NCBI GenBank assembly: GCA_943736015.1
Contig: OX031071.1
Coordinates: forward strand, 11,814,119 to 11,878,118
Direction: 5' to 3'
DNA length: 64,000 nucleotides
From: Tridacna crocea
Lineage: Eukaryota; Mollusca; Bivalvia; Cardiida; Cardiidae
Shown: one piece after another, positions 961 to 57,391 of the stretch
Layout of the letters: each line of letters opens with the position of its first letter
How positions within the stretch are numbered: position 1 is the stretch's first letter
Translations under genes and position numbers: made by a program
The notes under the pieces: model-generated
What the model was told of the DNA's origin: nothing
Databases searched by the model: none
The model's input: the letters and a program-made list of their open reading frames with translations, nothing else

Positions 961-965
961 ATAAA

Positions 966-1160
966 TCCAGAGCTCCAGATAGAGGGAATAATTTTGATTT
1001 CAAAATTACAAATATTAAGTACTCTTCACTGAACTCTATGTTATGGGTACTCTTTAGAATCATCTCATCGAGATGATGCTAATGAGTACCCACAACATAG
1101 GGTTTGGAAGAGAAATAAAAGATTTAGAATACCATTACTCCCTCTTAACTGGAGCTCCCC
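966..1160. mobile_element. Palindromic MITE D, copy 1
   Basis: The centre is a long palindrome: ATGTTATGGGTACTC pairs with GAGTACCCACAACAT around CATCTCATCGAGATGATG. The ends GAGCTCCAGATAGAGG and CTCTTAACTGGAGCTC are inverted. A second copy lies at 33701-33890. Confidence 0.7.
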
Positions 1161-5339: not shown

Positions 5340-6530
5340 AGCAAATTCTTTAAAAATCTTCTCCTCTGAAACCCCTGGTCGGATTTTGAAATAATTTCAC
5401 AGATATGTTCCTTGGGTGACCCTTTTCAAAAATTGTTCGTGAAATTTTGATCCGTCAAAAATTGTGGCTCTGGTGAATGGGGGCTACTTGCACTATACAG
5501 AAATGAAGGAATTCTTAAAAAATCTTCTCCTCTGAAACCGCTGGTTGGATTTTGAAATAATTTCACAGATATGTTCCTTGGGTGACCCTTTTCAAAAATT
5601 GTTTGTGAAATTTTGATCCGTCAAAAAATGTGGCTCTGGTGAATGGGGGCTACTTGCACTATACAGAAATGAAGGAATTCTTAAAAAATCTTCTTCTCCG
5701 AAACCGCTGGTCAGATTTTGAAATAATTTCACAGAGATGTTCCTTGGGTGACCCTTTTCAAAAATTGTTCGCGAAATTTTGATCCGTCAAGAAACATGGC
5801 TCTGGTGAATGGGGGCTTCTTGCACTATTGGGAAATGAGGAAATTCTGAAAAATTTTTCTTCTCTGAAACCACTGGTCAGATTTTGAAATAATTTCTCTG
5901 GGATATTCCTTGGGTGACCCTTCAAAAATTGTTCACAAAATTTTAATCCGTCAAGAAACATGGCTCTGGTGAATGGGGGCTACTTGCACTCTAGGGAAAT
6001 GAAGAAATTTTTAAAAATTCTTCTTCTCTGAAATGGCTGGACAGATTTTAAAATGATTTCACAGTGATGATCCTTGGGTGACCCTTTTCAAAAACCGTTC
6101 ACAAAATTTTGATCCATGAAGAAACATGGCTCTGGTGAATGGGGGCTACTTGCACTATATGGAAATGAAGAAATTCTTGAAAATTCTTTTTCTCTGAAAC
6201 CCCTAGTCAGATTTTAAAATAATTTGACAGAGATGATCCTTGGGTGATCCTTGCTCTTGTGAATGGGAGCTACTTGCACTATATGGACATGATGATATTC
6301 TTGAAAATTCTCTTTCTCTGAAACCCTGGTCAGATTTTAAAAGAAATTTTCTGAAATGTTCCTTGGGTGACCCTTTTCAAAACTTGTTCGTAAATTTTGA
6401 TCCATCAAGAAACATGGCTCTCGTGGATGGGGGATACTTGCTCTTATACAGAAATGAAGAATTCTTAAAAATTCTTCTTTTTGAAACTGATGGTCAGATT
6501 TTGAAATGAATTTTACATGTGACCTTTTGA
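5340..6530 (+). repeat. Tandem 165-bp units inside the bivalve element
   Basis: TCCTTGGGTGACCC recurs near 5410, 5576, 5740, 5907, 6073, 6238 and 6359, a period near 165 with a shorter last unit. Each unit also has TGGCTCTGGTGAATGGGGG and TTCTCTGAAACC. Open frames here are by-products of the repeats. Confidence 0.8.
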
Positions 6531-10392: not shown

Positions 10393-10621
10393 TTAACCCC
10401 TTACCCCATAAGACATTTCTGTGGTATCTCTAATTGACCCTAAATAACAGCAAGGATGAAGCCGTTTCTTTTGTGTATATGACACCTTTTGATAGCATAG
10501 AAAACATTGTGACAAAAGGTGAAATTGCTCATGACGAGCAATTTTACCTTTTGCCACAATGTTTTCCAAAGGCTCCTACAAGCAATGCGTAGAAATGAGT
10601 ATCTATGGAGTAAAGGGTTAA
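10393..10621 (+). mobile_element. TTAA palindromic MITE, subfamily C, full length
   Basis: TTAACCCCTTACCCC and GAGTAAAGGGTTAA ends. Core hairpin uses GACAAAAGGTGAAATTGCTC with loop ATGAC. The long arm carries ACCCTAAATAACAGCAAGG and the short arm CAAGCAATGCGTAGAAATG; these mark subfamily C. Confidence 0.85.
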
Positions 10622-11030
10622 AAGATTTGAAGCAATATTGTAGATCTGTGATTGAGCTTCTTGTTTTGTGCCGTCTGATCTTGATCTGAATAACAGGTCA
10701 GAGAAAAGAGTTTTGTCTTGGAATATTCAAAATAGCTGTAATTGCAGCTTTGTCCAGACCAGAATAAGATCAGATGGCTCCAAAATGAAAGACTACATTT
10801 TCTAGTTTATGTTATGAATTAAAACACCAGAAGATGACTTGAAACTGTAGGAAGTTGTCTCTTTCTAGGATCTGAAAGCATCCATTTCTCTTTTACATGC
10901 TTTAGATATACTTTAATTATTGAATGGATACCTATTTAAACATTTCCAAAACTGGTTAAAAGAATAGATATGAGGTATAGCAAGGGTGCACTTACGTTGT
11001 ATTTAAGAAATAATCTTCTTCCTATTGTGG
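10622..11030. other. No recognised feature
   Basis: Intron DNA; short GATCTTGATCTG-type stretches only. Confidence 0.45.
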
Positions 11031-15459: not shown

Positions 15460-15654
15460 TTAACTCTTTACCACACAAGAAAATTTTAGACTGGTCCAAA
15501 TTGAAAGCATTTGCAGACGACAAAATAAAGGTGACTTAAAAATAGAAATTTGTTCTGGGAAGGGTAGAAAACACTGTGGGAAAAGGAGAAAATGCTGGTT
15601 ACCAGCATTTATCCTTTTCCCATAGTGTTTTCAAAAGGCATCTATCTGGGTTAA
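15460..15654 (+). mobile_element. MITE A, short arm truncated
   Basis: The long arm and hairpin are complete; the short arm ends in GGGTTAA where the next copy starts. Confidence 0.75.
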
Positions 15655-15879
15655 CCCATTACCACACAATCCCTACTTTTGACGCCCCTGAGAAAGAAGC
15701 CTTTAGAAAACATTGTGGGAAAAGGAGAAAATGCTGATAACCAGCATTTTCTCCTTTTCCCATAATGTTTTCTACCCTTCAGGAAACAAATTTCAAATTT
15801 TCAGTCACTTTTATTTTTTCGTCTGCAAATGCTTTCAATTTGGACCAGTCTAAAATTTTGTTGTGTGGTAATGGGTTAA
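15651..15879 (-). mobile_element. MITE A, full length
   Basis: Shares its left TTAA with the previous copy; TTAACCCATTACC...GGTAATGGGTTAA. Confidence 0.88.
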
Positions 15880-16045
15880 TGTAGACAATATTGTTCAAGA
15901 TCCATTTTCTTTACATGTACCGTATGTCTGATGTTACACTGATGTTACACTGTCACGGAATTCACTCAGAGATGATTGAATATCGTGTTGATATCAGGGA
16001 AAGAGTTGTGTCACTGTAAATCACACCAATACTTCTATAAAATGA

Positions 16046-24540: not shown

Positions 24541-24618
24541 TATCAGTGATGAAGCATCCAAAGCCAAACACTGAACATCAGTACCCACATGTGTGCTCTT
24601 GTGTCAGTTTTGTATCTC

Positions 24619-24847
24619 TTAACCCTTTACTCCACAGATACTCATTTCTACGCATTGCTTGTAGGAGCATTTCGAAAACATTGTGGCAAAAGGTGAAATT
24701 GCTCGTGACGAGCAATTTCACCTTTTGCCACAATGTTTTCTATGCTATCAAAAAGTATCATATACACATAAGAAACAGCTTCATCCTTGCTGTTATTTAG
24801 GGTCAATTAGAGATACCATAGAAATGCCTTATGGGGTAAAGGGTTAA
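24619..24847 (-). mobile_element. MITE C, full length
   Basis: TTAACCCTTTACTCCACAG...GGGGTAAAGGGTTAA with a perfect hairpin core GAAATTGCTCGTGACGAGCA. The cleanest C copy, 132 bases before the micro-exon. Confidence 0.92.
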
Positions 24848-31548: not shown

Positions 31549-31900
31549 CCAAATTGAAAGCATTGGGAGTCAAGTTTTTATCTGTCTTTGTTAACCCTTT
31601 ACTCCACAGATACTCATTTCTACGCATTGCTTGTAGGAGCATTTGGAAAACATTGCGGCTAAAGGTGAAATTGCTCGTGACGAGCAATTTCACCTTTAGC
31701 CACAATGTTTTCTATGCTACCAAAAGGTGTGATATACACATAAGAAAAGGCTTCATCCTTGCTGTTATTTAGGGTCAATTAGAGATACCATAGAAATGCC
31801 TTATGGGGTAAAGGGTTAAGGCAGAAAACATTGTTGGAAAGTAAAAAATGGTGATTATCAGCATTTTCTTCTTTTCCCAAAATGTTTTCAAAAGTATTCT
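31545..31900 (+). mobile_element. MITE A split by a MITE C (outer copy)
   Basis: The left part ends TTATCTGTCTTTG at 31590; the right part resumes at 31820 with GGCAGAAAACATTG and a hairpin to about 31900. The left end is truncated by the preceding copy. Confidence 0.8.
31591..31819 (-). mobile_element. MITE C, full length, nested
   Basis: TTAACCCTTTACTCC...GGGGTAAAGGGTTAA with core GCTCGTGACGAGC and the stem pair GCGGCTAAAGG/CCTTTAGCCAC. Confidence 0.9.
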
Positions 31901-33700: not shown

Positions 33701-33890
33701 CAGATCTCCAGATGGAGTGATTTTGATTTCAAAGTTGAAAATACAAATTATTCTTAACTAAACCCTATGTTGTGGGTACTCATTAGAATTGTCTCATCGA
33801 GATGATTCTAACGAGTACCCACAACATAAGGCTTGGAAGAGAAATAATGGATTTAGAATGCCATCACTCCCCCTAATCCGGAGCTCTGGT
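33701..33890. mobile_element. Palindromic MITE D, copy 2
   Basis: ATGTTGTGGGTACTCATTAG pairs with CTAACGAGTACCCACAACAT around TCTCATCGAGATGA; matches 966-1160. Confidence 0.75.
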
Positions 33891-33920
33891 TATCCAGAAG
33901 GAAAAATTCACTGTAACTAT

Positions 33921-34127
33921 TGTTATGGGAGACCACTCCTTCCTGCATGGCATATACTCCCGATTTAAATACAATACCTGATTACTGCGTCAGGGAGATA
34001 TCTCTTTGGCTCAGTGGTTAGGGTATTGGCTTTGCGTCCGGGAGTTCGGAGTTCGAATCCCGCTCCGATCCATATTTCTGCCATGCATTTATTCATTTGT
34101 TTCTTTGTTACGGACATCGTTCGTAAG
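33921..34127 (+). repeat. TRIM 5' LTR
   Basis: It begins TGTTATGGGAGACC and ends GTTCGTAAG. It contains the tRNA-like segment about 80 bases in, followed by a T-rich tail region. The end could be one base longer because the flanking A is shared. Confidence 0.85.
34007..34060 (+). promoter_or_regulatory. tRNA-like RNA polymerase III promoter in 5' LTR
   Basis: A box TGGCTCAGTGG at 34007-34017 and B box AGTTCGAATCC at 34050-34060, 43 bases apart, the spacing found in tRNA genes. The acceptor and anticodon stems do not pair well, so this is tRNA-derived and not a working tRNA gene. The second LTR repeats it at 34331-34384. Confidence 0.7.
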
Positions 34128-34128
34128 A

Positions 34129-34146
34129 TGGGGGCTCGTCCGGGAT
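34129..34146 (+). other. TRIM primer-binding site, tRNA-Pro type
   Basis: TGGGGGCTCGTCCGGGAT matches the primer-binding site complementary to tRNA-Pro that is known from murine leukaemia virus. It sits one base after the 5' LTR, as expected. Confidence 0.85.
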
Positions 34147-34233
34147 TGGCCATTGAGCCATTAATCCCATTTGTTGTCCAAAATCGGACTTCCTGCCTAA
34201 TAAGGCTTTGAGTCATCAATAAATGATGACTTT

Positions 34234-34244
34234 AAGAGGGGGTG
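34234..34244 (+). other. TRIM polypurine tract
   Basis: AAGAGGGGGTG directly precedes the 3' LTR start, the usual place for plus-strand priming. Confidence 0.75.
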
Positions 34245-34451
34245 TGTTATGGGAGACCACTCCTTCCTGCATGGCATATACTCCCGATTTAAATACAATA
34301 CCTGATTACTGCGTCAGGGAGATATCTCTTTGGCTCAGTGGTTAGGGTATTGGCTTTGCGTCCGGGAGTTCGGAGTTCGAATCCCGCTCCGATCCATATT
34401 TCTGCCATGCATTTATTCATTTGTTTCTTTGTTACGGACATCGTTCGTAAG
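34245..34451 (+). repeat. TRIM 3' LTR
   Basis: It has the same length as the 5' LTR and I see no difference between them. It is followed by the target duplication actat and, 53 bases on, exon 10. Confidence 0.85.
34331..34384 (+). promoter_or_regulatory. tRNA-like RNA polymerase III promoter in 3' LTR
   Basis: Copy of the A and B boxes in the 3' LTR. A polymerase III transcript from here would run toward exon 10 in the sense direction. Confidence 0.65.
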
Positions 34452-34504
34452 ACTATACTTTATCAATCTAACTAATAATGTTAATTCATGTTCCCTTTTT
34501 TCAG

Positions 34505-40184: not shown

Positions 40185-40876
40185 GTACTCAATAGGTATG
40201 GGGAAAAAATTTTCAGCTTATTTAACTTATAACTTATCAAGTAATATCATCTTTATTATATATATTATCAACCATAAACTCATTCTTTTTTTCAAAATGG
40301 TCAATGGTCTAGTTCCAAACTACCTATGCTCTTTTGTCCCGCCCACTATTGGAAGTAACACGACTTTAATCTTCGTAATTCTAATGACTTGGCAAACATA
40401 GTTTGTAGAACTAGCGTTTATATGAATTCCTTTCTGCTATCAGGTGTAAACGCATGGAACTTTTTGCCACAAACTAAAAGAGAAACTGACTCTCTCTTGT
40501 CGTTTAAACGTTTGCTGAACATAGACAAACCCACTCCTTGTAAACTGTATTTTAATGGGGAAAGAAAAATGCAAATTATTCATACTCGACTTAGAAATAA
40601 CTGTAGCGATCTAAAACAACATCTCTTCTGGAAAAATATTGTGGCTTCTCCTCTTTGTCGTTGCGGGGAACTTGAATCTAATACACACTACGTGTACTTC
40701 TTTGAATGCAGATTTTATCATTCGAACAACACTCTCGGACAACATATTAGTGCAAAATCTGCTTTCAATATTGATACAGTTCTTTTTGGAGACAATGAAC
40801 TCTCCCTTGTCGAAAACAAACAGATCTTCAATGCAGTTCATGAATACATTGATAAAACCAAGAGATTCTCTTAGTT
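40185..40876 (+). pseudogene. LINE ORF2 C-terminal fragment
   Basis: Two frames are involved. Up to about 40355 reading gives FFKMVNGLVPNYLCSFVPP. From about 40363 the next frame gives FNLRNSNDLANIVCRTSVY, then WNFLPQTKRETDSLLSFKR, then HLFWKNIVASPLCRCG and THYVYFFECRFY. VNGLVP-x-YL, LRNSNDL and the C-x-C-x8-H-x5-C end are typical of the tail of non-LTR reverse transcriptase proteins (CR1/L2-like group, clade uncertain). One frameshift lies near 40360 and the catalytic reverse transcriptase domain is absent, so it is a 5'-truncated dead copy. Ends with TAG at 40872-40874. Confidence 0.7.
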
Positions 40877-57191: not shown

Positions 57192-57391
57192 TTAAATCCT
57201 TACCAAATGACAAAATTCTAGACTGGTCCAAATTAAAAGCATTTGCAGACAACAAAATATAAGTGACCAAAAATTTTAAATTTCCTTTGGGAAGGGAAGA
57301 AAGCATTGTTGGAAAAAGAGACATTGCTGGTTACCAGTGTTTTCTTCTTTTTCTTACAGTGTTTTCAGAAGGCTTCTTTCTCAGGGTCAAT
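57192..57391 (+). mobile_element. MITE A, right end lost
   Basis: TTAAATCCTTACCAAATGAC to TCTTTCTCAGGGTCAA, 92 bases before terminal exon B. Confidence 0.7.

What the first reader, a model, noticed from the sequence alone, without database searches (positions are those of the whole stretch)
33921..34451. Miniature LTR element whose LTRs carry a tRNA-like Pol III promoter
Seen: two 207-bp direct repeats that look identical, a tRNA-Pro primer-binding site right after the first, a purine tract right before the second, and a 5-bp target repeat (actat). These are the parts of a TRIM. Each LTR also holds an A box (TGGCTCAGTGG) and a B box (AGTTCGAATCC) at tRNA spacing. Known parallel: plant Cassandra TRIMs carry 5S RNA promoters in their LTRs. 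Inference: this is an animal counterpart with a tRNA-like promoter, possibly transcribed by RNA polymerase III, that borrows reverse transcriptase from a larger element. It looks whole and recent.
Basis: partly seen in the sequence, partly recalled or inferred. Interest (0 to 1): 0.88.

Follow-up and report, generated by a model that had tools for sequence, protein, structure and literature searches.

The report
Mini LTR retroelement with tRNA-like promoter
This is a very short, apparently recently inserted retrotransposon whose end repeats carry a tRNA-like promoter; elements of this kind, called Helenus, were described in bivalves and other organisms in 2024, so it is a clean example of a known kind rather than a discovery.

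Summary
Two identical direct repeats flank a 116-bp core with an 18-nt proline-tRNA primer-binding site and a polypurine tract. Each repeat carries the only A-box/B-box pair of the tested consensus in the window; 0 of 20,000 shuffled LTRs had one. One correction: identity runs to 208 bp, so 208-bp LTRs, a PBS abutting LTR1 and a 4-bp target repeat (CTAT) is the better reading.

The proposed "animal counterpart of Cassandra" is already in print. Kojima 2024 (PMC10886601) described Helenus, TRIMs with tRNA-like LTRs, including 51 families in pteriomorph bivalves, some tRNA-Pro-primed, with 4-bp target repeats in animals. I file this as a new member of a known kind. Comparison with those consensus sequences, copy number and host could not be tested.

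I add two features, both suggestive only. The element has no TTTT, the canonical Pol III stop (P 0.017 by dinucleotide shuffles). The LTR RNA folds into a long hairpin (z -7.3 sense, -3.0 antisense) whose transition-type arm mismatches are all G·U (8:0). However, 23 of 303 other window segments fold as strongly, and 1 of 20 control hairpins is as lopsided. Pol III transcription remains inferred.

The parts
33917..33920 (.). left target site repeat CTAT (ACTAT 33916-33920 in the 207-bp LTR reading)
33921..34128 (+). 5' LTR, 208 bp
   Evidence: 208 of 208 identical to 34245-34452
33964..33971 (+). TATA-like TTTAAATA, 43 bp upstream of the A box (second copy 34288-34295)
   Evidence: role inferred
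34007..34017 (+). A box TGGCTCAGTGG in 5' LTR
34050..34060 (+). B box AGTTCGAATCC in 5' LTR
33956..34045 (+). long imperfect hairpin of the LTR RNA: arms 33956-33997 and 34002-34045, the second arm holding the A box (second copy +324)
   Evidence: whole-LTR fold z -7.33, pairs; G-U bias of mismatches 8:0; controls weaken it
33944..34087 (+). domain closed by a perfect 9-bp outer stem, 33944-33952 with 34079-34087
34096..34109 (+). T-rich TTTGTTTCTTTGTT, possible weak non-canonical Pol III stop (second copy 34420-34433)
   Evidence: sequence; role is inference
34129..34146 (+). [quoted passage not shown]
   Evidence: the same string lies in the probe called MLV-PBS in PMC4587795, which names it a proline-tRNA site (passages)
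34129..34244 (+). core, 116 bp
34234..34242 (+). polypurine tract AAGAGGGGG
34245..34452 (+). 3' LTR, 208 bp
34331..34341 (+). A box in 3' LTR
34374..34384 (+). B box in 3' LTR
34453..34456 (.). right target site repeat CTAT

Best explanation
A complete, recently inserted Helenus-type TRIM (group TRIMp3). Shown: LTR-PBS-PPT-LTR order, target repeat, identical LTRs, A and B boxes at tRNA spacing in each LTR, no long coding frame. Inferred: RNA polymerase III, recruited through the A and B boxes, starts at about 33985-33995 in the 5' LTR and reads through the core into the 3' LTR, or on to the first TTTT, which lies in the flank at 34496. A Ty3/Gypsy-type helper element supplies capsid, reverse transcriptase and integrase; proline tRNA primes first-strand synthesis at 34129, the purine tract primes the second strand, and the helper's integrase makes a 4-bp target repeat. 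The tRNA-like part works as a promoter, not as a tRNA. My odds by step: TRIM anatomy 0.97; Helenus-type 0.93; Pol III as the main source of the RNA 0.65.
For: Anatomy. A+B pair absent from 20,000 shuffled LTRs. No TTTT in the 532-bp element: P 0.017 by dinucleotide and 0.059 by mononucleotide shuffles of the 324-bp unit; 26 of 1256 same-length overlapping segments of the window lack TTTT, and the largest TTTT-free gap of the window (33721 to 34496) holds the element. Cloverleaf broken: 1 of 7 acceptor pairs and 2 of 5 T-stem pairs in a numbering set by the boxes. Published Helenus: tRNA-like LTRs, PBS, PPT, 4-bp target repeats in animals, tRNA-Pro among bivalve primers, Gypsy helpers inferred from PBS similarity.
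Against: One copy only; no genome to search. No transcript data. Rfam does not score the region as tRNA even at E 5, and ARAGORN finds none, so the likeness rests on the boxes. The paper reports GGTTC as conserved in box B; here it is AGTTC. The LTR ends GA/AG instead of CA. A TATA-like box would give nearly the same start for Pol II. The lack of TTTT is modest in size. No AATAAA lies in the LTR, but one lies in the core at 34218, which could serve Pol II.
Confidence: 0.72

Rival explanations
1. An ordinary Pol II-driven TRIM: the TATA-like TTTAAATA drives transcription, and the A and B boxes are a fossil of a tRNA-derived SINE that once landed in an ancestral LTR.
For: TTTAAATA at 33964 would place a Pol II start about 30 bp on, near the start expected from the A box. 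The cloverleaf is decayed.
Against: Both boxes and their spacing are intact while the stems are not, which suggests the promoter is what is kept. No AATAAA in the LTR and no TTTT in the element.
Confidence: 0.2
2. A deletion derivative of one autonomous Gypsy element whose own LTRs carry the tRNA-like boxes, so not an independent TRIM lineage.
For: PBS and PPT would be inherited directly from such an element; [quoted passage not shown]
Against: No full-length relative could be looked for. Kojima argues that Pol III LTRs do not suit long autonomous elements. The window has no second tRNA-Pro PBS, and 8 of 8 open frames of 130 aa or more gave no Pfam match at E 0.001.
Confidence: 0.07
3. Chance tandem duplication of a tRNA-derived SINE; PBS, purine tract and target repeat are coincidences.
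For: tRNA-like boxes are typical of SINEs; only one copy could be seen.
Against: A full 18-nt PBS exactly at the repeat end (0 of 100 shuffled windows had a match with up to 3 mismatches), a purine tract 2 bp before the second repeat, and a matching target repeat.
Confidence: 0.01

Closest known systems
Helenus (TRIMp3), animal and above all bivalve families; Kojima 2024, PMC10886601
   Same: TRIM size (published 311-1263 bp, here 532), tRNA-like A and B boxes in the LTRs, PBS and PPT, tRNA-Pro among the primers used in bivalves, 4-bp target repeats in animals, tRNA-like part not a working tRNA in most families.
   Different: Box B starts AGTTC rather than the GGTTC reported as conserved. The paper does not mention an LTR hairpin or inverted repeat (term search), and its two uses of 'terminat' concern Cassandra. 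Sequence identity to the published families is untested: the supplement could not be read.
Cassandra (plant TRIM with 5S rRNA promoter)
   Same: Pol III-type internal promoter in each LTR; works alike in outline (passages).
   Different: 5S-derived instead of tRNA-derived; Cassandra RNA is said to end in the 5S sequence of the 3' LTR, whereas this element holds no TTTT.
biv-TRIM (bivalves; PMC6934838)
   Same: TRIM with LTRs of 202-218 bp.
   Different: Core 77-80 bp with conserved TGATCCCAAAGGAC and no clear PBS; this core is 116 bp, lacks that segment as read by eye, and has a full PBS. The passages read mention no tRNA-like LTR.
Retrozymes
   Same: Plant retrozymes are small non-autonomous LTR elements with PBS and PPT and structured LTR RNA (passages).
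   Different: No hammerhead or other Rfam family found here; animal retrozymes lack LTRs, PBS and PPT.

Membership tests
TRIM | two LTRs around a short core, under about 1000 bp in all | tested here: met
   532 bp, 208-bp LTRs, 116-bp core
TRIM | PBS after 5' LTR and PPT before 3' LTR | tested here: met
TRIM | no coding capacity for mobilisation | tested here: met
   longest ATG frame overlapping the element is 83 aa, antisense; not searched against protein libraries
TRIM | dispersed multicopy family with solo LTRs | not testable with these tools
   no genome held; none in the window
Helenus (TRIMp3) | tRNA-like sequence with box A (TRGCY, YGG) and box B in the LTR | tested here: met
   TGGCT..TGG and AGTTCGAATCC at spacing 43; box B differs from GGTTC in its first base; Rfam and ARAGORN give no tRNA
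Helenus (TRIMp3) | 4-bp target repeat (animal families) | tested here: inconclusive
   CTAT with 208-bp LTRs, but ACTAT with 207-bp LTRs fits equally by sequence; one copy cannot decide
Helenus (TRIMp3) | PBS of a type known from bivalve Helenus | tested here: met
   proline-tRNA site; tRNA-Pro is among the bivalve types
Helenus (TRIMp3) | sequence similarity to published Helenus consensus | not testable with these tools
   supplement look-ups capped at 0; Repbase not held
Helenus (TRIMp3) | transcription by RNA polymerase III | not testable with these tools
   no RNA data; only indirect signs
Retrozyme | hammerhead ribozyme in the LTR | tested here: not met
   no Rfam match in 33900-34480 up to E 5

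The most novel reading that the evidence does not exclude
The LTR RNA structure is part of the replication strategy. The U3 arm just upstream of the promoter is kept complementary, by G-U pairs on the sense strand, to the A-box half of the tRNA-like sequence in R. In the transcript, U3 near the 3' end could then pair with R at the 5' end, a panhandle that would hand the strong-stop cDNA over to the 3' end or mark the RNA for a helper's particles. With the loss of TTTT stops, this would be a Pol III-made retrotransposon genome with a built-in end-joining hairpin.
Probability: 0.1. Interest if true: 0.6.

Novelty: new member of a known kind. Interest (0 to 1): 0.3.

Why it matters
It is an apparently whole and recent copy of a little-studied class (TRIMp3) for which Pol III transcription is proposed but not proven outside Cassandra. 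The lack of TTTT and the sense-biased LTR hairpin are two simple predictions that could be checked at once across the published Helenus consensus sequences. If the hairpin reading held, it would bear on how elements that share no LTR sequence with a helper are still copied by it.

Tried and rejected
True tRNA: rejected. ARAGORN found none in the window and none in 33901-34480 at three intron-free settings; Rfam none. A fourth, relaxed setting that allows introns gave one 'tRNA-Thr' at 34128-34395 with a 183-nt intron, running from the LTR1 end through the core into LTR2; I take it as an artefact.

Tandem SINE: rejected on PBS, purine tract and target repeat. Hammerhead retrozyme: no Rfam match.

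Copies elsewhere: five exact-pattern scans of viral contigs and two of prokaryote genome contigs gave 0 matches. These collections are not expected to hold animal DNA, so this says nothing about copy number.

Autonomous partner in the window: no second tRNA-Pro PBS; the 8 open frames of 130 aa or more listed gave no Pfam match at E 0.001. Shorter frames were not searched.

Empty site: the left flank resembles window 965-1157 (82%), but the likeness stops at 33886, 34 bp before the insertion, so no pre-insertion site is seen.

First A/B-box scan missed the element's own boxes because my pattern forced an extra base in the D loop; its zero chance count is worthless and it was redone.

Hairpin: the tRNA-like part alone is not unusually stable (z 0.25 and -0.18). 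The whole LTR is (z -7.33; -7.79 with other shuffles), but 23 of 303 other + strand segments of the window have z of -7.3 or below. One shuffled window held 46 inverted repeats at the same DNA score of 30, while 0 of 500 shuffled LTRs reached it. The 8:0 bias was equalled in significance by 1 of 20 control hairpins with six or more such mismatches (9:0 at 57332).

Non-canonical Pol III stop TTTGTTT: the paper search gave 2 papers, neither containing that motif; only a general remark on T-rich non-canonical terminators was seen (PMC6651528, passages).

The confidence of the best explanation (0.72), given per step here, and the novel-case odds, set at 0.1 instead of 0.12, were settled at this check because of the hairpin controls.

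Full report
OBSERVATION. The two repeats 33921-34127 and 34245-34451 are identical, and identity extends to 208 bp, ending at 34128 and 34452. Directly after the first lies TGGGGGCTCGTCCGGGAT (34129-34146), the only match in the window with up to three mismatches, with none in 100 shuffled windows. The same string lies within a probe that PMC4587795 calls the MLV primer-binding site and describes as the site for proline tRNA (two passages seen). Complementarity to the host's own tRNA-Pro was not tested. AAGAGGGGG at 34234-34242 is the longest purine run of the 324-bp LTR+core unit and ends 2 bp before the second repeat. The target repeat is CTAT with 208-bp LTRs or ACTAT with 207-bp LTRs. A and B boxes start at 34007 and 34050 and again at 34331 and 34374, 43 bp apart. 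They are the only such pairs of the tested consensus on either strand of the window; 0 of 20,000 shuffled LTRs and 8 of 150 shuffled windows contain one.

AGE. Zero differences in 208 positions give an upper 95% bound of 1.4% divergence between the LTRs, so the insertion looks recent. I give no date, since host and rate are unknown.

WHAT IT IS. The anatomy is that of a TRIM. The tRNA-like part keeps the promoter boxes but not the cloverleaf: 1 of 7 acceptor pairs and 2 of 5 T-stem pairs in a numbering set by the boxes. ARAGORN and Rfam do not recognise it. The longest ATG frame overlapping the element is 83 aa, antisense.

COMPARISON WITH PRINT. Of PMC10886601 I read the abstract and outline, Methods, Results, Discussion, and the tables and legends, and passages of the rest; its supplement could not be read. 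It describes Helenus: TRIMs of fungi, animals and one plant with tRNA-like LTRs, 311-1263 bp long. Fifty-one families come from five orders of pteriomorph bivalves; bivalve primers include tRNA-Pro; Gypsy elements are the likely helpers in animals; animal target repeats are 4 bp. It says that Pol III use is not experimentally validated for Helenus. One search of papers from 2024 on for Helenus, TRIMp3, tRNA and LTR (at least three of the four) returned only this paper. biv-TRIM (PMC6934838; abstract, and part 1 of 2 of Results) has LTRs of similar length but another core and no clear PBS.

FIRST ADDITION: NO TTTT. The 532-bp element holds no TTTT. For the 324-bp unit this has P 0.017 in 5000 dinucleotide shuffles and 0.059 in 5000 mononucleotide shuffles. 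26 of 1256 overlapping 324-bp segments and 4 of 1248 overlapping 532-bp segments of the window lack it. The largest TTTT-free gap of the window, 33721 to 34496, contains the element. By comparison, 22 of the 1256 segments lack AAAA, and the element has one AAAA, at 34180. A Pol III transcript that must cross an LTR and the core would need to avoid TTTT, but the effect is modest and rests on one copy. A T-rich stretch in the LTR (34096-34109) might act as a weak stop; this is inference.

SECOND ADDITION: LTR HAIRPIN. The sense LTR folds to -81.5 kcal/mol against -52.0 for 200 shuffles (z -7.33); the antisense gives -57.2 (z -2.96). The main helix pairs 33956-33997 with 34002-34045, the second arm containing the A box. 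A DNA-level alignment of the arms, which gives G-U pairs no credit, has 31 matches and 12 mismatches: 8 G-U, 0 A-C, 4 others. An even split is expected without RNA-level constraint; the two-sided binomial chance of 8:0 is about 0.008. The 194 control hairpins of the window pool to 258 G-U and 251 A-C, but 1 of the 20 with six or more such mismatches is as lopsided. Also against: the window is rich in palindromic repeats, and 23 of 303 segments fold as strongly as the LTR by z. A modelled transcript, 33994-34452, is more stable than its 100 shuffles (z -7.20); there R at the 5' end pairs with U3 near the 3' end, but the start point is assumed. The paper on Helenus has no occurrence of hairpin, palindrom- or inverted.

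MECHANISM. Shown: anatomy, identity, motifs. Inferred from general knowledge of LTR retrotransposons: tRNA-Pro priming, strand transfers, integration by a Gypsy-type helper. Inferred and unproven: Pol III transcription from about 33985-33995. The TATA-like box at 33964 would give nearly the same start for Pol II, so position alone cannot decide. The start range and the A-box and B-box consensus are recalled, not taken from a call, except that the paper's own box motifs were seen.

LIMITS. No host genome is held. Copy number, solo LTRs, helper element and identity with the published consensus sequences remain untested. If the host lay outside Pteriomorphia, that would widen the published molluscan range.

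Noticed in passing
33751-33843 and 965-1157: Just upstream of the element lies a hairpin with 45-nt arms, 80% complementary, part of a repeat with a relative at 965-1157 (82% identical).
   Followed up: partly
many places, e.g. 24611-24847, 31583-31819, 10393-10626, 15652-15888: A family of roughly 230-bp palindrome-bearing repeats fills much of the window in both orientations, pairs up to 94% identical; they look like MITEs (from memory) and explain the many strong hairpins.
   Followed up: no
around 57332: A hairpin unrelated to the element whose transition mismatches are 9 G-U to 0 A-C on the + strand, the one control as lopsided as the LTR.
   Followed up: no
5343-6252: Tandem array, period 166 bp, 5.5 copies, 89% matches.
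   Followed up: no
40359-40874: Open frame of 171 aa whose sequence recalls the end of a LINE-type reverse transcriptase protein (from memory); no Pfam match at E 0.001.
   Followed up: partly
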